This document shows positions 35,504 to 42,066 of a stretch of DNA of 64,000 nt, piece by piece. How positions within the stretch are numbered: the stretch's first letter is position 1; each line of letters begins with the position of its first letter. A program made the position numbers and the translations under genes. The notes under the pieces are model-generated. The model saw nothing but the letters and a program-made list of their open reading frames with translations. It was not told the origin of the DNA and searched no databases. Origin of the DNA: Desulfobacula sp. (GTDB lineage: Bacteria > Desulfobacterota > Desulfobacteria > Desulfobacterales > Desulfobacteraceae); the NCBI GenBank assembly GCA_023701135.1, contig JAMPXP010000013.1:1-64000 (forward strand). Direction: 5' to 3'.

Positions 35504-38500
35504 TTATTCATGGAGGTTGTTATTCTCCAACAAATATTTTGCCATATAATACTCAAAATTGATGATCTTATGGGTCTGGACCACCCGTCTTAAAATATCT
35601 TCAGCCCTGTCAGGATCTCCGTTCATATCCAGAAAAAGGGCATGATAGAAGAAAAGGAGTTCAAACCATTTAAACGATCTGTCGGTCTTTGCATAAGGAG
35701 ATTTCGCAAAGGTTCCGGGATCTTTTAAATGGCCGAATATTTCATCATATGCCACCTTGCCTGCAAAATAGCCGATGAGCATTTCAGCCATGACATGGCC
35801 TGCATCGGATTCCAAACGGCCGGGCCAGCCTAAGGGCTTAATGGAGGCCCACCGTTCCTGCAACAGCTCACGGGCTTCGTTTTTTTCACCTTTTTTAAAA
35901 AGCGCCCAGTGAAAAAGCAGGCGCAAATAATCCCTGTCATCATCATAGGACTCATACAGGAACCGGCGGGCATCATATTGGTAATCTCCCGAGAGAGAGA
36001 CAAGCTGGATAAAAAGTTTGTGCTTGAGCCATAAAAACAGGTTCTGGTTATCCGATTTCATCAGATCTTCGGCAAGCATGACGGCTTTTTCATATTGACC
36101 CTGGTCCAAAGTTAAAAGATATTCCAGGACCTTCATATCATAGCTGTCCGGGAATGATTCTCTTCCCTTTTGCAAGACCTCATGGGCCCGGGTCCGGTCA
36201 CCGGCAATGAGATAAGCTTCTGAAAGATCATAATAAATCCGTTCACAGGCGGGCCAGCCCTTATCCGGCTGAATTTTATCTGCCAAGGTCCTCAGCAATC
36301 CTATTGCCGGCTCTATCAGCCCGGCCTTCTCATCCGGATCTGCATCTTCGCTCAGGTGCTTGTAGGCACGGGCCAGTTTCCAATCCAGCCACCCGGCATT
36401 TTGCGCCTTAAAATCATCGGGTAGTCTTCCAATGTAACGCCTGGCTTTTTCCAACAGATCTACAGCCTTGATCCAATCTTCCTTTCCGGATCGATCGCTT
36501 AAAAATTCTCCGGCCCTGTAATTTATCCAATATCCTTTGGAATGTATCGTTTCTTGAGCCAATTCATAGAGCAGGGATGCAAACCAAGCCGGGGCCTTTG
36601 GTACGGTTCCCCTGTCATGATATGGTTTAGCCAATTCATATAATAGATCGTCTGCTTTTAGTTCGTCAAACCCATTACATGCGTTTAAAAGCAAGGCTTT
36701 AATCCTGTCAAGGTATGGGGGAAGTCCTGCACGGTCGCCATGATGCCGGATCATAAAATTGGCCAGCAGATAGCCTTCCTCCAGGCTCAGGTTCGTCTCC
36801 CTATCGTCGGATACCAGCTCCTGAATAAGATGTCGGGCTTTTTGGCCATAATTTGCGGATATATAATTCCAAAGCAGCCATAATTGAAGCCGGCGCCGTT
36901 CCAGGGGCAGGATTTCCGTATCCTGGTCTATAAACTCCTCAAGCTCATAAATAAGCCATGGGTCCTGGGCCATATTGGTAGAGGCAATTTGCCCCGGTTC
37001 CGGCAAACTGCATTTTGTCCTGAAATTTTCAAGCCGGCCCTTTGAAGTCAACGCAAATTGTTGCGGATACAATTTTAAAAAAGCACGATAAGCGTATTCC
37101 CTGTCATTCCGGACAGCTTTTCTGAACAGCTCGGTTGCACGGGTCAGGCTGCCTCCGGAAAGTTTGGCAATCCCCTCTTTTAAAAAGACCAAGCCTTTGG
37201 AATCCTCCAGTTCATAAGCCACAGGGGTCACCCTTGCCTCTTGAAGGCTGCGCAGCCGGGTTTTGATGGTGTCCAAATCATCCAGGTCATCCCCCATGGC
37301 CGCCCAGAACAGCAATGAACCAAACAGCCATTGGGGGTAACGGATGGTTTGGCTTTTTGACGGGACTCCGGCTAGGTCCCCGGATTTTGCTTGTAAGGAT
37401 ATTTCCCTTTCATCCTTTTCCGGTGAAATAACGGACCTCAAGATGAGCTTGATATCCGTGAGGGTAAATTGTTTCTTCAGCCAGGTTTTCAGTTCAGGGG
37501 GCATGGCCTCAAGGATCAAAGCCGCTTTTTCCGTCGTAATCAGCCGGGTCCGGTAAGCTTCAATTCTCTGGCCGAGCCCGGACATCAGACGTTCAATGAA
37601 TCGATCCGGAAGCGCTTTAATGGGAACGGCGTCAGGGTTATCCTTTTCCTGATTCGGCATCAGGATTGAAAACGAATCCTCATCCAGCCCATCATCTGTG
37701 GGAAAATATATCCACGGCACATCCAGTCCGAATTTCCAGTATATTTTCCCCCGCAGTTCTGAAACGGCCTCTATGATCTCAGGTTTTAAATGATCGGAAA
37801 AATTCTTTGCCAGATAAACATTGATCGGCGGGAGTTCCAAAGGAATATAGGGGCCGGCTTCCTCATAAATCCATATCCAGCCGGACCTATTTTCTTCTGT
37901 TTTTCCGGATTCATTTTGAAAGGGCAAATCCCGTCGTTTCGGAAGCCTGCCGGTATAATCATCGCCCTTGGATTCGCTGTCCGCTATGGCATATCTTGCA
38001 GCATCTTCCGGAGAATAACCGGGACACCGGGCCAGGGAATCCAATACATATTTAAGACGGGTTAAGGATTTTTTTTGTTTGATGCATTCTATCATCACAG
38101 CCCGGATTCCCTCGATGCCTCCCTGGGCCGCCAGCGCCTCGGCAACGGTATGGGGAAAATCCTTACGAATTCGCTCAACCAGAAAAGCAACACTCTCGCG
38201 GGTAAAGATATATTCAGGATTGTTCAATAATACATTCCCAACGATTTGGACCAAGGCTGCTTCCGGCATATAAAACGGATAGCCTGCGGTTTTCCACAAC
38301 ACCGATGTCCAGCGTGGGACAAGATACCATTCACCTGGAAGTTCAGGCAGTTGGCTCCAATTTTTCTTATTTTCATCAAAAAAATTCTTAAGCGGGTCTG
38401 CGAGCCCTTTGTTCTCAAAAAGGATCCTGTCTTTCAGCTTAGATATGGTTCTTTTTACAAAAATTTTTTCCCCTGTCCTTGAACCGGCTTTCATCTCTTC

Positions 38501-40252
38501 ATCATAAAACAATCTAATTTCAGATATCGGCAGACTGGGGTCCTCCAGGAATTTCAACCTTAAAGGCAAAGGAAATCCATGCCTTCCTGCAATATTTGCA
38601 GAATAATACCACCACTCAAACCGCAATTGGTCCTGATTGATCACAAGGTCTGGATTATATTTCAACGTCAGTGGCCAGGGGGAATTCGCGTCAACTCCGG
38701 GCATTATCCTTCCGGCCCTTTTGTCGGCCCCGTAATCAGCGGGAATGAGGTCTTCTGCCTGTTGAAGGATTTGGACAAGATCGCCAAGCCTTTCTTTATT
38801 TCTTTTTGATAAACCATAGAGAAAGCCTGCGATACTGTTCAAGGTGTTTTCCTGTTTGAGCACCCTTTCCTCTTTATCCAGTCTCGGGAGCTCTTCCCGC
38901 AGTTTTTCAATTTTTCCCGTTGTCTCCTGGTGCCGCCTTTTTTCCCGCTGACGGTCATTATATATCGGTTTGGCAAAATACAGGATGGTCATAAAAAGGA
39001 AAAAAGAAAAGACGGCAAATGTTAACGCCCGTTTCCAGAGCCGGTTTCTTATTAACCGCTTTCGCAGGTTCTTGTTTGCTTCCTGGATGGGTTTGATGAG
39101 CCTGTCGTGGGTCAGTTCGTACCAGCGGGCGCCGGCCCTCACCTCGGCACGGATAAGGTGTTCACTCTCCAGAGTATCCACAAGAGAATTGGGAATCCCG
39201 CCTGTCTGTTCTTCCTCCCGGAAAACCGTCCCCCGGGTCCCGGAAGGAGTGATCAGCCGTTCAAAAAACCAGGTATGCAGCTTGTCCGATGAGGTGCGGG
39301 ACTTTCTGGCAGTGTTGCCGATGACCCTCACATAGAATTCCTTCAAGGCTTCGTCCACATTGCCTGATTTTTGAAGCTGATCATCCGTGATAACTGAAAG
39401 ATCTCCGGGCAGATTGGACCATAAGCTCTTGCAGACCACCTGCAATTGCACGGGCTCGACATATTTGCCAGGTGTTTCGATCATATTGTTGAAAGAATCC
39501 GTGGTCCGGATGGTGAGCAATTCTTTTACCAGTTTTTCCGCCACGCCTGTATCAAATTTAACCCTTGTATTGTTCAAAGGGCCGGTAACGGCTTCATGGG
39601 CAGCCTGTTCCCCAAGGCACTCCAACTGGTAGCGAAACCGGAGCTGTTCAGGCAATAAGAATGCATAGGGGGTCATGTTGGCCAGATAATCCTCCCGCAT
39701 GACAAACAGGACCCGTAAAAGCGGATCAGCCGCAAGGGCTTCGGCAACCTGCTGAAAAAACCCCTCACGGGCTTTCCATCGTTCCGGATAAAACGAAAAC
39801 AATTCCTCAAACTGGTCAAAGATAATGACCCTGCCCAAAGCGAATCCGTCTTCGTCAAAACAGGGCTGCCTGTCCTTCAGGAATCGGCTGAGGGTCAGGT
39901 TCAAAAGGTCCGGTGGCTTTATACCGTCTCCTGCCCAACTGATAAGGGCGTTGAACGCATAGGGATTGGGGATGGATGAAGGACTCATTGACTCAGGGAT
40001 TAGCCCTCTGACGCGCGCCAAAGGCAGGACTTCCAATTCTTCCCGTTCAAGAAGGGGGATAAGACCGGCATTTATCAACGAAGTTTTACCTGCACCGGAT
40101 TGGGCATAAAGCAAGAGCGTGCGATGGGAAATGATTAAGGATAAAATTTCATTAACTTCCCGGTCTCTTCCGAAAAACGGATATTGGGAATTTTTCTCAA
40201 AGGGACTGGGACCGGGATAAGGGCATTTTTCTCTGGAACTATGTGCCATCAC
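35504..40252 (-). CDS. Large STAND-type (nSTAND1-like) NTPase with membrane segment and helical repeats
   Basis: The 1582-residue protein begins with PYPGPSPFEKNSQYPFFGRD, the entry motif of nSTAND1 ATPases. Walker A is QSGAGKTS (51-58), Walker B is VIIFDQFEELF (142-152), and a winged-helix-like part follows (about 320-400). A single membrane segment lies at about 408-427, then a charged coiled coil (431-472), then about 1100 residues rich in helices with TPR/SEL1-like stretches (e.g. RAEDILRRVVQTHKIINFEYYM at the end). STAND proteins act as sensors that assemble when they recognise a ligand. It overlaps the SIR2-family gene by about 14 bases, so the two are coupled. GTG at 40252 or ATG at 40249 may be the start. 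A role as the sensor of a defence system is inference. Confidence 0.82.
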   Translation of the reverse strand: MMAHSSREKCPYPGPSPFEKNSQYPFFGRDREVNEILSLIISHRTLLLYAQSGAGKTSLINAGLIPLLEREELEVLPLARVRGLIPESMSPSSIPNPYAFNALISWAGDGIKPPDLLNLTLSRFLKDRQPCFDEDGFALGRVIIFDQFEELFSFYPERWKAREGFFQQVAEALAADPLLRVLFVMREDYLANMTPYAFLLPEQLRFRYQLECLGEQAAHEAVTGPLNNTRVKFDTGVAEKLVKELLTIRTTDSFNNMIETPGKYVEPVQLQVVCKSLWSNLPGDLSVITDDQLQKSGNVDEALKEFYVRVIGNTARKSRTSSDKLHTWFFERLITPSGTRGTVFREEEQTGGIPNSLVDTLESEHLIRAEVRAGARWYELTHDRLIKPIQEANKNLRKRLIRNRLWKRALTFAVFSFFLFMTILYFAKPIYNDRQREKRRHQETTGKIEKLREELPRLDKEERVLKQENTLNSIAGFLYGLSKRNKERLGDLVQILQQAEDLIPADYGADKRAGRIMPGVDANSPWPLTLKYNPDLVINQDQLRFEWWYYSANIAGRHGFPLPLRLKFLEDPSLPISEIRLFYDEEMKAGSRTGEKIFVKRTISKLKDRILFENKGLADPLKNFFDENKKNWSQLPELPGEWYLVPRWTSVLWKTAGYPFYMPEAALVQIVGNVLLNNPEYIFTRESVAFLVERIRKDFPHTVAEALAAQGGIEGIRAVMIECIKQKKSLTRLKYVLDSLARCPGYSPEDAARYAIADSESKGDDYTGRLPKRRDLPFQNESGKTEENRSGWIWIYEEAGPYIPLELPPINVYLAKNFSDHLKPEIIEAVSELRGKIYWKFGLDVPWIYFPTDDGLDEDSFSILMPNQEKDNPDAVPIKALPDRFIERLMSGLGQRIEAYRTRLITTEKAALILEAMPPELKTWLKKQFTLTDIKLILRSVISPEKDEREISLQAKSGDLAGVPSKSQTIRYPQWLFGSLLFWAAMGDDLDDLDTIKTRLRSLQEARVTPVAYELEDSKGLVFLKEGIAKLSGGSLTRATELFRKAVRNDREYAYRAFLKLYPQQFALTSKGRLENFRTKCSLPEPGQIASTNMAQDPWLIYELEEFIDQDTEILPLERRRLQLWLLWNYISANYGQKARHLIQELVSDDRETNLSLEEGYLLANFMIRHHGDRAGLPPYLDRIKALLLNACNGFDELKADDLLYELAKPYHDRGTVPKAPAWFASLLYELAQETIHSKGYWINYRAGEFLSDRSGKEDWIKAVDLLEKARRYIGRLPDDFKAQNAGWLDWKLARAYKHLSEDADPDEKAGLIEPAIGLLRTLADKIQPDKGWPACERIYYDLSEAYLIAGDRTRAHEVLQKGRESFPDSYDMKVLEYLLTLDQGQYEKAVMLAEDLMKSDNQNLFLWLKHKLFIQLVSLSGDYQYDARRFLYESYDDDRDYLRLLFHWALFKKGEKNEARELLQERWASIKPLGWPGRLESDAGHVMAEMLIGYFAGKVAYDEIFGHLKDPGTFAKSPYAKTDRSFKWFELLFFYHALFLDMNGDPDRAEDILRRVVQTHKIINFEYYMAKYLLENNNLHE

Positions 40253-41120
40253 GATTCTGTCTCCATCTTTCCATCAGTTCTTTTATAAAATCACGGGCAG
40301 TGGCCCAATGGATTCTCACATCAGTATTCTGAAAATATTTTTCAAGGAAAAACTGGGATTTTTTTTGTTCCTTGTCCGATTCTTCCGGAGGCAACTGCAC
40401 AGCCACACTGATCCGTCTCAGGCTTTTTTCCAGGGACCCGACAAGGCCCCGGAAAAGCACCCGGAAAGTCCAGTCTGAGAGACGATAACCGATAAACAGC
40501 AACGAGGCTCCCGTCAGCGCCTGCTGAATCCGGGGGGGCAGCAATGCCTGGTTCCTTGAAATATTGACGAGGAAATCCAGGTAGTCATCCTCGGTCAGGA
40601 CCATTGATTCCGGGACATCCGCTTTGCCGTGGAGATGAAAAACGACCGGATTGGCAGGGCTGGGGTCATAAAAAGGCGTCCCGTCAAAAGCCGAGGGTAT
40701 CTCTCTGATATATTTATTCCATCGGCACATTTCCTGGACCGGATTTCTCTGCCGGGACCGAAGGGCTTCGGCCATGAAATTATCATAATTGGTTGTCAGG
40801 TATACGGGCAGGGGAAGGTCCGCCAGATTGCCGTGCAGTTCATCATTGGATTTAAACTCCGGGGGTTTATAACTCTTTATCAGATCGGCAATCTCATCTT
40901 TCGGGAACATGGGGTCGCCCCTGTCAACGGCCAAAAACTGAGCGACACGGGCCAGGTCATAGCTGTCACATAGGGGGTAGCTATACTTTATGGACCAGCC
41001 ATGGGCAACCTCCGAACCCAGGGGAAGGGTTCCGGCACAGGCCCCGGCCCCCAGGAAAGGCGTACATTTTCCCTGGGCTATTCTTTTTAACAGAATGTCC
41101 CAATGTTTATCTTCAAGCAT
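40239..41120 (-). CDS. SIR2-family protein (putative NADase effector)
   Basis: The 293-residue protein has the SIR2-like motifs of bacterial defence effectors: CTPFLGAGACAGTLP (about 18-32), YLTTNYDNF (about 110-118) with the family's catalytic asparagine region, VFHLHGKAD (about 168-176) with the histidine, TEDDYLDF, and a closing LLFIGYRLSDWTFR. In systems such as Thoeris and SIR2-STAND (Avs-like) proteins such domains degrade NAD+ on infection. It lacks the zinc-binding cysteines of true deacetylases. Here it is the middle gene of three, between a membrane receiver protein and the STAND protein, so sensing and killing could be split over separate chains. The ATG has AAGGA upstream. Confidence 0.88.
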   Translation of the reverse strand: MLEDKHWDILLKRIAQGKCTPFLGAGACAGTLPLGSEVAHGWSIKYSYPLCDSYDLARVAQFLAVDRGDPMFPKDEIADLIKSYKPPEFKSNDELHGNLADLPLPVYLTTNYDNFMAEALRSRQRNPVQEMCRWNKYIREIPSAFDGTPFYDPSPANPVVFHLHGKADVPESMVLTEDDYLDFLVNISRNQALLPPRIQQALTGASLLFIGYRLSDWTFRVLFRGLVGSLEKSLRRISVAVQLPPEESDKEQKKSQFFLEKYFQNTDVRIHWATARDFIKELMERWRQNRDGT

Positions 41121-41152: not shown

Positions 41153-41794
41153 TCAATCTTTTTTTCTTTCCAGGGCGTCAAGGGCGAGATGGACCAGTTC
41201 GTCCGGTCTGTTGGTAATGCCAAAGGCCCTGGCAGGCGTCCCCAGAGCCGGGTCAAAAACACCCACATAAAAAATGACCGGTAAAAATTCTCTTTTTGAA
41301 ACAAGGCTGTCAAGCAATTCAAGACCGGCTGTCTTGTTATCCCCGTGAACCATATCGGAAAATACAAGATCATAGGAATGATTTCTCATCAAGGTGGATG
41401 CTTCGTTCAAATCCTTTGCAAGGTCTATCTCAACCCCAAGCTCTGAGAACATCCGGATTTCATTTTTATTGTTTTCCGGGTGATCGTCGACCCAGAGGAT
41501 GCGGGAATTTTTGAAATAGCCCAAATGGTTTTTAATGCGGGTTAATACTCTTTTTTGATCGGCAGATGATGTCCGGACTTTCCACTGGGGGGATTTCTCA
41601 GCCAGGCGGATGGATTTTTCAATATATTCCTTTACAAAGGACAGCTCCACGCCCAGGGCCTTGAAACTGCCAAGCTTGGGAATCAATTCATCCCGTATGG
41701 GCCGGTAAAAAAGAAACAGGCAACATAATAGAAAACAGAACCCCAAAAGGGAGGGAAGGATCTTGATGATTTCAACAATTATGGTTGTATTCAC
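41153..41794 (-). CDS. Membrane-anchored receiver-domain protein
   Basis: The 213-residue protein has one N-terminal membrane segment (about 7-29). A juxtamembrane part follows (about 35-65, LIPKLGSFKALGVELSF), then a receiver-type domain (about 97-210). It has the acidic pair in RILWVDDHPENN (D103, D104) and the phospho-acceptor-like aspartate in LVFSDMVHGD (D147). The usual conserved lysine of receivers is not evident (the loop reads PVIFYVGVFDPALG), so phosphorylation may not be used in the standard way. It starts with GTG (AAGGAGC upstream) and is first in the operon with the SIR2-family and STAND genes. No histidine kinase is beside it. Confidence 0.8.
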   Translation of the reverse strand: MNTTIIVEIIKILPSLLGFCFLLCCLFLFYRPIRDELIPKLGSFKALGVELSFVKEYIEKSIRLAEKSPQWKVRTSSADQKRVLTRIKNHLGYFKNSRILWVDDHPENNKNEIRMFSELGVEIDLAKDLNEASTLMRNHSYDLVFSDMVHGDNKTAGLELLDSLVSKREFLPVIFYVGVFDPALGTPARAFGITNRPDELVHLALDALERKKD

Positions 41795-42066
41795 GGTCTC
41801 GCTCCTTATTAAACAGATGAATGAAGCAGCTCGACAGAAAAGGGATGGTTTATCTCTATATTGAATTCAATGAAAAATCAATGAGGGAAAACCCTGAATT
41901 TTCATATTTTTTACGATTAATCTTTGTTTTAAAGAAAATTGCCGGGTCTGGTAAGCGATTCTCATTTTTTGTCCTGGCCCTGTTGTCAAACAAGGCTTAC
42001 TCTATAGCTAACCAACCTGAATTAAATGATAAAATATTTTTATAGTTTTAAAAATTAAAAATAATC

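What the first reader, a model, noticed from the sequence alone, without database searches (positions are those of the whole stretch)
41153..41794. Receiver domain tethered to the membrane without a kinase or the usual conserved lysine
The protein keeps the acidic pair (D103, D104) and the acceptor-like D147, but the loop where the conserved lysine would be reads PVIFYVGVFDP. It has an N-terminal membrane segment and no DNA-binding output. In an operon with SIR2 and STAND genes it may act as a protein-protein switch or adaptor rather than a two-component regulator.
Basis: partly seen in the sequence, partly recalled or inferred. Interest (0 to 1): 0.65.

Follow-up and report, generated by a model that had tools for sequence, protein, structure and literature searches.

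The report
Membrane-tethered pseudo-receiver beside SIR2 and STAND
A small membrane protein carries a signalling domain that looks like half of a bacterial two-component switch but has lost the parts that respond to phosphate; it belongs to a rare, scattered family in which the same domain is joined to membrane segments or to NAD-destroying modules typical of bacterial antiviral defence.

Summary
Window 41153-41794(-) encodes one predicted transmembrane helix plus a receiver (REC) domain, no output domain, and starts a tight three-gene cluster with SIR2_2 and nSTAND1-TM genes. D103, D104 and D147 are kept. Both switch residues are absent.

New here: the protein belongs to a rare clade of REC domains in which the acidic residues are nearly invariant (44, 43 and 45 of 45) while Thr/Ser (8 of 45) and Lys (2 of 45) are mostly lost. 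N-terminal parts are interchangeable: TM, two-TM hairpin, TIR, TIR-like or DUF4062-type (TIR-like NADase), wHTH-TM, or large conflict-system proteins. I read it as a phosphorylation-independent sensor/adaptor tied to NADase-type defence, tethered here beside a SIR2-STAND pair.

Against: no SIR2 or STAND relative lies in the 41 other family loci, four SIR2-STAND pairs elsewhere lack this REC, and the host has 126 HisKA matches, so partnership and kinase independence are inferred. Kinase-free receivers in conflict systems were already proposed in print: a new variant of a known kind.

The parts
41153..41794 (-). TM + pseudo-receiver gene, 213 aa, GTG start
41802..41807 (-). AAGGAG ribosome-binding-like site upstream of the GTG
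   Evidence: sequence
41705..41761 (-). predicted transmembrane segment, residues 12-30
   Evidence: Kyte-Doolittle scan, more K/R on the C-terminal side
41639..41665 (-). juxtamembrane motif FKALGVELS, residues 44-52; a pattern written after seeing the sequences fits 13 of 15 members classed as single-TM
41156..41506 (-). receiver-fold domain, residues 97-213
41483..41488 (-). acidic pair D103-D104
   Evidence: D in 44/45 and 43/45 of the clade (the 27 pattern-scan members are biased here)
41354..41356 (-). acceptor-position D147
   Evidence: 45/45 in the clade
41264..41266 (-). V177 at the canonical Thr/Ser site
   Evidence: Thr/Ser in 8/45 of the clade
41207..41212 (-). N195-R196; R196 at the canonical Lys site
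   Evidence: Lys in 2/45; Asn at the preceding site in 33/45
40239..41120 (-). SIR2_2 protein, 293 aa, with GAGA, TTNYD and LHG motifs
   Evidence: PF13289 E 1.7e-25; PDB matches include KomC and ThsA chains; motif meaning recalled
35504..40252 (-). nSTAND1 NTPase + TM + C-terminal region with marginal TPR matches, 1582 aa
   Evidence: PF20703 E 3.9e-35
38972..39028 (-). predicted TM segment of the STAND protein, residues 409-427

Best explanation
The protein is a membrane-tethered pseudo-receiver: a receiver fold that keeps the acidic metal-site residues but has lost the Thr/Ser and Lys that read out phosphorylation. It belongs to a clade in which this domain is a regulatory or sensor module attached to interchangeable N-terminal parts (one TM, two TM, TIR, TIR-like, DUF4062-type, wHTH-TM). 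In this operon it most likely holds a cytoplasmic switch or adaptor at the membrane, beside the membrane-bound STAND sensor and the soluble SIR2 NADase, and controls or reports their activation without a histidine kinase. Shown by sequence and model: fold, residues, clade membership, partner exchange, gene order. Inferred: co-function with SIR2 and STAND, the defence role, kinase independence, the nature of the ligand or partner surface.
For: REC fold. Over 45 domains the acidic positions are D in 44, 43 and 45; Thr/Ser is kept in 8 and Lys in 2. Clade separate from 7 canonical RECs, 100/99 support. Partners: TIR_2 (L032, L040, L050, L143); DUF4062 (L045, below Pfam's cut-off; L042 as next gene, 95 bp away); a PADLOC effector model described as TIR (L036); an EAD5/VMAP/MoxR/SLOG system (L012); a protein with two such RECs, GAF and acylphosphatase (L138); pYEATS as next gene (L025). 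Well-supported branches force at least three gains or losses of TIR. HisKA-type profile: 0 of 41 family loci. In the host genome 14 of 18 other REC matches lie within 2 kb of a HisKA match (several are in one protein with it), this one 17 kb. wHTH-TM-REC proteins L141 and L142 are predicted to put the domain outside the cytoplasm. REC-SIR2-STAND spacing is that of an operon.
Against: REC-SIR2-STAND was seen once: no family REC in four other SIR2-nSTAND pairs, and no SIR2 or STAND relative at E 1e-5 in 41 other family loci. Four further STAND relatives (L107-L110) have no SIR2 directly beside them, and three SIR2 relatives (L110-L112) are parts of proteins of about 685 aa. By eye most of the 27 loci are solitary genes without an evident defence neighbour. 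The host's 126 HisKA matches leave a distant kinase possible. The window row has a long branch (1.51) and no well-supported close sister. The 38 control loci L056-L093 also rarely had a HisKA kinase (4 of 38), so that test discriminates weakly; it would miss NarX-type kinases, and L031 has, by eye, such a kinase-regulator pair upstream.
Confidence: 0.5

Rival explanations
1. It is an ordinary orphan response regulator, phosphorylated at D147 by a distant kinase or small phosphodonor, with Arg substituting for Lys and its effect made through protein contacts.
For: D103, D104 and D147 intact; host has 126 HisKA matches; 11 of 33 members carry Arg at the Lys site.
Against: Both switch residues mostly lost across the clade; no output domain; predicted extracytoplasmic copies in L141 and L142; fusion to TIR-type domains.
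Confidence: 0.15
2. The REC-like pocket is an enzyme or receptor for an NAD-derived or cyclic-phosphate nucleotide, as proposed in print for cREC; the acidic residues bind metal and ligand, and the TM or TIR part is the output.
For: Nearly invariant acidic residues with lost phosphate-switch residues; linkage to TIR, DUF4062-type, SLOG and, here, SIR2; published cREC proposal for a divergent Rec never found with kinases and tied to NAD/ADPr enzymes (PMC7824862, section 20).
Against: Only 4 of 28 members reach the cREC model at E 0.05, best E 0.005, while 28 of 28 match PF00072. No ligand evidence. By eye no cyclase gene in the loci I read (not searched for).
Confidence: 0.2
3. The TM-REC is a chance neighbour of a two-gene SIR2-STAND defence module and does something unrelated.
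For: SIR2-nSTAND pairs occur without it (L105, L106, L113, L114) and 41 other family loci hold no SIR2 or STAND relative; by eye most other members are solitary.
Against: Same strand, 32 bp gap, a ribosome-binding-like site before REC and before SIR2; family linked elsewhere to NADase-type domains; REC and STAND both predicted membrane-bound.
Confidence: 0.3

Closest known systems
Pseudo-receivers (Bourret et al. 2025, PMC12632262)
   Same: Recognised as a receiver (PF00072) but lacks residues of the conserved active site; by that paper's definition this is a pseudo-receiver.
   Different: The paper reports that about 80% of pseudo-receivers are non-acidic at the second acidic position while D, T and K each stay near 65% (section 7); here the acidic residues stay and T and K go. 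TM and TIR attachments are not discussed in the two sections that I read (4 and 7).
Kinase-independent receivers in conflict systems (Kaur et al. 2020 PMC7159879; 2021 PMC8195603)
   Same: Receivers in vWA-MoxR, iSTAND2 and TERNS3 systems without histidine kinases, in the 2021 paper proposed as nucleotide-responsive switches (passages read). L012 lies in such a system and L138 looks like one.
   Different: The passages that I saw give no TM-tethered form beside SIR2 and nSTAND1 and no residue pattern.
cREC (PF20274; Iyer et al. 2021, PMC7824862)
   Same: Divergent Rec tied to NAD/ADPr enzymes, never found in histidine-kinase systems (section 20).
   Different: This family matches PF00072 in 28/28 and the cREC model weakly in 4/28.
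DUF4062 TIR-like NADases, Swarozyc (PMC13174449, preprint; abstract and passages seen)
   Same: A DUF4062-type domain is fused to this REC (L045, weak match, and four sister proteins not scanned with Pfam) and a clear DUF4062 gene follows a two-TM-REC gene (L042).
   Different: 'Receiver' and 'response regulator' do not occur in that paper's main text; the auxiliary domain it describes is a helix-turn-helix/winged fold.
Pycsar (names PycTM and PycTIR recalled; start of the abstract of PMC11224242 seen in a search listing)
   Same: One sensor domain carried with either a TM or a TIR output (recalled), as here.
   Different: The sensor is a cyclic-pyrimidine receptor encoded with a cyclase; here the sensor is a receiver fold and no cyclase was noticed.
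SIR2 defence proteins ThsA and KomC; STAND defence proteins (Avs, recalled)
   Same: SIR2 matches KomC and ThsA chains, though its best PDB match is a 278-aa chain named only NAD-dependent protein deacetylase (9v0g); PADLOC ThsA models match.
   Different: SIR2 and nSTAND1 are separate genes; PADLOC has no match for this STAND.

Membership tests
Receiver domain fold | beta-alpha receiver fold and PF00072 above cut-off | tested here: met
   35.8 bits against 30.2; Z 17.0
Functional phospho-receiver | acidic pair and acceptor Asp | tested here: met
   D103, D104, D147
Functional phospho-receiver | conserved Thr/Ser and Lys | tested here: not met
   V177 and R196 by alignment
Two-component system | cognate kinase near the gene | tested here: not met
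   nearest HisKA match 17 kb away; a distant kinase is not excluded
Pseudo-receiver | PF00072 match lacking key active-site residues | tested here: met
   definition from PMC12632262
Aspartate-less receiver | acceptor Asp replaced | tested here: not met
   D147 present, 45/45 in the clade
cREC (PF20274) | match to the cREC model | tested here: not met
   window domain matches PF00072 only at E 0.05; 4/28 members weakly cREC
cREC (PF20274) | acts on cyclic phosphates | not testable with these tools
   needs biochemistry
Known anti-phage defence component (the receiver) | convincing match to a PADLOC model | tested here: not met
   best E 0.0025
SIR2-STAND defence module (the two neighbours) | SIR2 effector domain and STAND NTPase as adjacent genes | tested here: met
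   sequence level only, activity and defence not tested
SIR2-STAND module with a receiver as third gene | recurrence of the triad in other genomes | tested here: not met
   0 of 4 other SIR2-nSTAND pairs and 0 of 41 other family loci

The most novel reading that the evidence does not exclude
This clade is a distinct class of phosphorylation-independent receptor: a receiver fold turned into a metal-dependent sensor of a nucleotide or NAD-derived signal (or of a partner protein), which drives interchangeable outputs (membrane segments, TIR or DUF4062-type NADases) in the way that Pycsar or CBASS sensors do, and which in two proteins even works outside the cytoplasm as the sensor of a ToxR-like regulator. 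In this window the membrane form has joined a SIR2-STAND NAD-depletion module as a third component.
Probability: 0.25. Interest if true: 0.75.

Novelty: new variant of a known kind. Interest (0 to 1): 0.5.

Why it matters
Pseudo-receivers are common, yet how bacterial ones are switched on and off is called a mystery in print (PMC12632262, abstract). This clade offers a clean case: the metal-site residues are kept, the phosphate readout is lost, and the outputs (TIR, DUF4062-type NADase, TM) can be assayed. An E. coli member exists in 26 of 5426 complete genomes, so the question can be tested in laboratory strains.

Tried and rejected
Rejected: membership of cREC by model match. Not found: a second REC-SIR2-STAND triad.

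Led nowhere: with the window protein as query, viral contigs gave no confirmed relative and phages no match. The plasmid hit in Hyphomicrobiales (L011) is, by eye, an ordinary OmpR-type regulator. Two Proteus mirabilis hits were not followed. Synteny of the insertion site: YqeY was found in 4 of 9 other same-genus genomes, none with the window's other flank genes beside it, so insertion as one unit could not be tested. GC of the block (44-51% per kb) is lower than that of the genes from 43 kb on (53-59%), which is suggestive at most. No tRNA in the window. The first 402 residues of STAND have no PDB sequence match at E 0.01. SIR2 relatives on plasmids: 24 records, of which I read 2.

Rows left out of the 45-domain count: L028, L051, L086 (no ORF in the expected frame), L041 (in-frame stop), L120 (ORF not recovered), L021 (same protein as L048), L013 (same gene as L010). 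L056-L093 were not counted as family: four (L056, L057, L059, L060) served as canonical rows; the rest I did not read one by one. L046 and L136 are identical in the REC. L138 counts twice (two domains). The seven canonical rows are few and not a random choice. The 27 members found by pattern scan are biased towards the acidic pair and PENN, but not at D147, T or K; the other 18 show the same trend. In L020 and L025 the loop before beta-5 is longer, so their Lys column is less sure. The HK profile was built from 15 of 20 host kinase stretches and would miss NarX-type kinases. The structural search lists only receivers among the rows shown.

Changed on re-checking: one search was added to test SIR2, STAND and family-REC co-occurrence by tblastn and HMM; because it found no other co-occurrence, confidence in the best explanation went from 0.55 to 0.5 and the chance-neighbour rival from 0.25 to 0.3.

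Literature seen: PMC7159879 and PMC8195603 passages; PMC7824862 section 20 and passages; PMC13092281 section 5, figure legends and passages (HATPase and receiver stand in its abbreviation list for predicted systems; not followed); PMC12632262 abstract, outline, sections 4 and 7; PMC13174449 abstract, outline and passages; PMC11224242 search listing only. Burroughs and Aravind 2020, cited in PMC8195603, is not held under the DOI that I recalled, so I cannot say whether this clade is named there. Searches for the clade in print.

Full report
What is there. Window 41153-41794 on the minus strand is an open frame of 213 aa with a GTG start and AAGGAG seven bases upstream. Pfam finds one domain, Response_reg, E 1e-8. 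A hydropathy scan gives one TM segment at residues 12-30 with more positive charge on the C-terminal side, so the domain should be cytoplasmic. AlphaFold2 on a 27-row alignment (the window and 26 relatives) gives a model of mean pLDDT 84.6 with a long N-terminal helix and a beta-alpha domain whose best structural match is a solved receiver at Z 17.0, 1.7 A over 115 residues. Downstream on the same strand, after 32 bp, is a SIR2_2 protein, and then, overlapping by 14 bp, a 1582-aa nSTAND1 protein with its own predicted TM segment and marginal TPR matches.

Residues. D103, D104 and D147 fall on the canonical acidic pair and acceptor. The lysine position, after beta-5 (192-194), is R196. So both phosphate-readout residues are missing.

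Relatives. With the window protein as query there was no confirmed relative in viral contigs and no match in phage records. An E. coli relative occurs in 26 of 5426 complete genomes; in the two records that I read it lies between yfgI and guaA. One scan of genome contigs gave 68 loci, of which those up to L055 are mostly of this kind. Profile searches of whole genomes gave hits in 3 of 292, 3 of 296, 6 of 299 and 2 of 169 genomes of four phyla (each count includes the genome used as centre) and, with a smaller profile and a laxer limit, 6 of 395 in the window's own phylum (own genome included, and by eye the two weakest are ordinary receivers). The family is rare and scattered.

Pattern in the family. 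In 45 domains (27 from a pattern scan that favours the acidic pair, 18 not) the acidic positions are D in 44, 43 and 45; Thr/Ser is kept in 8 and Lys in 2; the residue before the Lys site is Asn in 33. A tree separates them from seven canonical receivers with 100/99 support, though the canonical set is small and some branches, the window's included, are long. Bourret and colleagues report another trend for pseudo-receivers in general: the second acidic residue is non-acidic in about 80%, while D, T and K each stay near 65% (PMC12632262 section 7).

Partners. N-terminal to this domain are one TM (a juxtamembrane pattern, written after seeing the sequences, fits 13 of 15 members that I classed as single-TM; three of these, L020, L025 and L048, score as two segments), a two-TM hairpin, TIR_2 (L032, L040, L050, L143), a TIR-like domain that matches a PADLOC effector model described as TIR (L036), a DUF4062-type domain (L045, 18.1 bits against a cut-off of 24.7; four sister proteins not scanned with Pfam) and a DNA-binding wHTH followed by a TM (L141, L142). 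L042 has a clear DUF4062 gene 95 bp downstream. DUF4062 was recently shown to be a TIR-like NADase in phage defence (PMC13174449, abstract). Two very large proteins contain the domain: L012 (with a SLOG domain, next to EAD5-trypsin, VMAP and MoxR-type genes) and L138 (two copies, with GAF and acylphosphatase; a MoxR-type gene before it by eye). L025 stands before a TM-pYEATS gene, and the E. coli gene L010 after an AAA ATPase gene with a transposase remnant between. Well-supported branches force at least three gains or losses of TIR, so outputs have been exchanged around a conserved REC. In L141 and L142 the wHTH should be cytoplasmic, so one TM would put the REC outside, where a histidine kinase cannot reach it; this is a prediction from hydropathy and charge.

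Kinases. A HisKA-type profile built from 15 host kinases hit 0 of 41 family loci (583 kb of flank) and 4 of 38 control loci, L056-L093, so this test is weak; by eye L031 has a NarX-type kinase and regulator upstream, which the profile missed. In the host genome 14 of 18 other REC matches lie within 2 kb of a HisKA match, several in one protein with it, and this one is 17 kb away. The genome has 126 HisKA matches, so a distant kinase remains possible.

Is the receiver a partner of SIR2 and STAND? SIR2 carries GAGA, TTNYD and LHG motifs (sequence; meaning recalled) and matches KomC and ThsA chains; it should be an active NADase (inferred). SIR2 next to an nSTAND-type gene recurs in Ensifer (L105), Nonomuraea (L106) and two genomes of the window's order (L113, L114), all without a REC of this family. 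Four further STAND relatives (L107-L110) have no SIR2 directly beside them, and three SIR2 relatives (L110-L112) are the end of larger proteins. None of 41 other family loci holds a SIR2 or STAND relative at E 1e-5. So SIR2-STAND is a module of its own and the receiver is an addition seen once. Gene spacing and the family's ties to NADase-type domains favour co-function; recurrence does not support it.

Mechanism. I favour a phosphorylation-independent switch or adaptor tethered at the membrane beside the membrane-bound STAND protein, gating or reporting SIR2 activation (0.5). Rivals are a nucleotide or NAD-product receptor or enzyme (0.20), an ordinary orphan regulator (0.15) and a chance neighbour (0.30); these overlap and need not sum to one.

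Known or new. Receivers without kinases in conflict systems, as nucleotide-responsive switches, were proposed by Kaur et al. 2021 (PMC8195603, passage), and a divergent cREC tied to NAD enzymes by Iyer et al. 2021 (PMC7824862, section 20). The family here is closer to PF00072 than to cREC (28 of 28 against 4 of 28 weak). I found no description of this residue pattern or of the TM/TIR/DUF4062 exchange in the searches; a 2020 paper that may bear on it is not held. Hence: new variant of a known kind.

Noticed in passing
L141:8163-9023 and L142:8131-9057: wHTH - one TM - pseudo-REC, reverse of the usual OmpR order and ToxR/CadC-like; the REC is predicted outside the cytoplasm.
   Followed up: partly
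L138:8342-13789: 1815-aa protein with two of these RECs, GAF, acylphosphatase and, by eye, a caspase-like C-terminus, after MoxR-type ATPase and caspase-like genes.
   Followed up: partly
L025:2-2458: TM-REC followed by a TM-pYEATS gene and a gene with a weak DUF2589 match.
   Followed up: partly
L010:6571-9360 / L013: E. coli accessory block between yfgI and guaA: AAA ATPase with PADLOC PtuA/GajA/AriA-type matches, transposase remnant and a two-TM-REC; the REC gene is in 26 of 5426 genomes.
   Followed up: partly
L042:9581-11456: Two-TM-REC with a DUF4062 gene 95 bp downstream, while other members look like DUF4062-type-REC fusions.
   Followed up: partly
L105, L106, L113, L114: SIR2 followed by an nSTAND-type NTPase as a recurring two-gene unit in Ensifer, Nonomuraea and two genomes of the window's order.
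   Followed up: partly
window 38972-39028: STAND protein has a single predicted TM between NTPase and C-terminal region, strongly basic on both sides, so the side of the C-terminal part is unclear.
   Followed up: no
L041:9590-10366: A two-TM-REC gene broken by an in-frame stop.
   Followed up: no
H32/H33, H67/H68 (Proteus mirabilis records NZ_OL790811.1, NZ_OL790812.1): Partial matches to this REC family in two Proteus mirabilis records.
   Followed up: no
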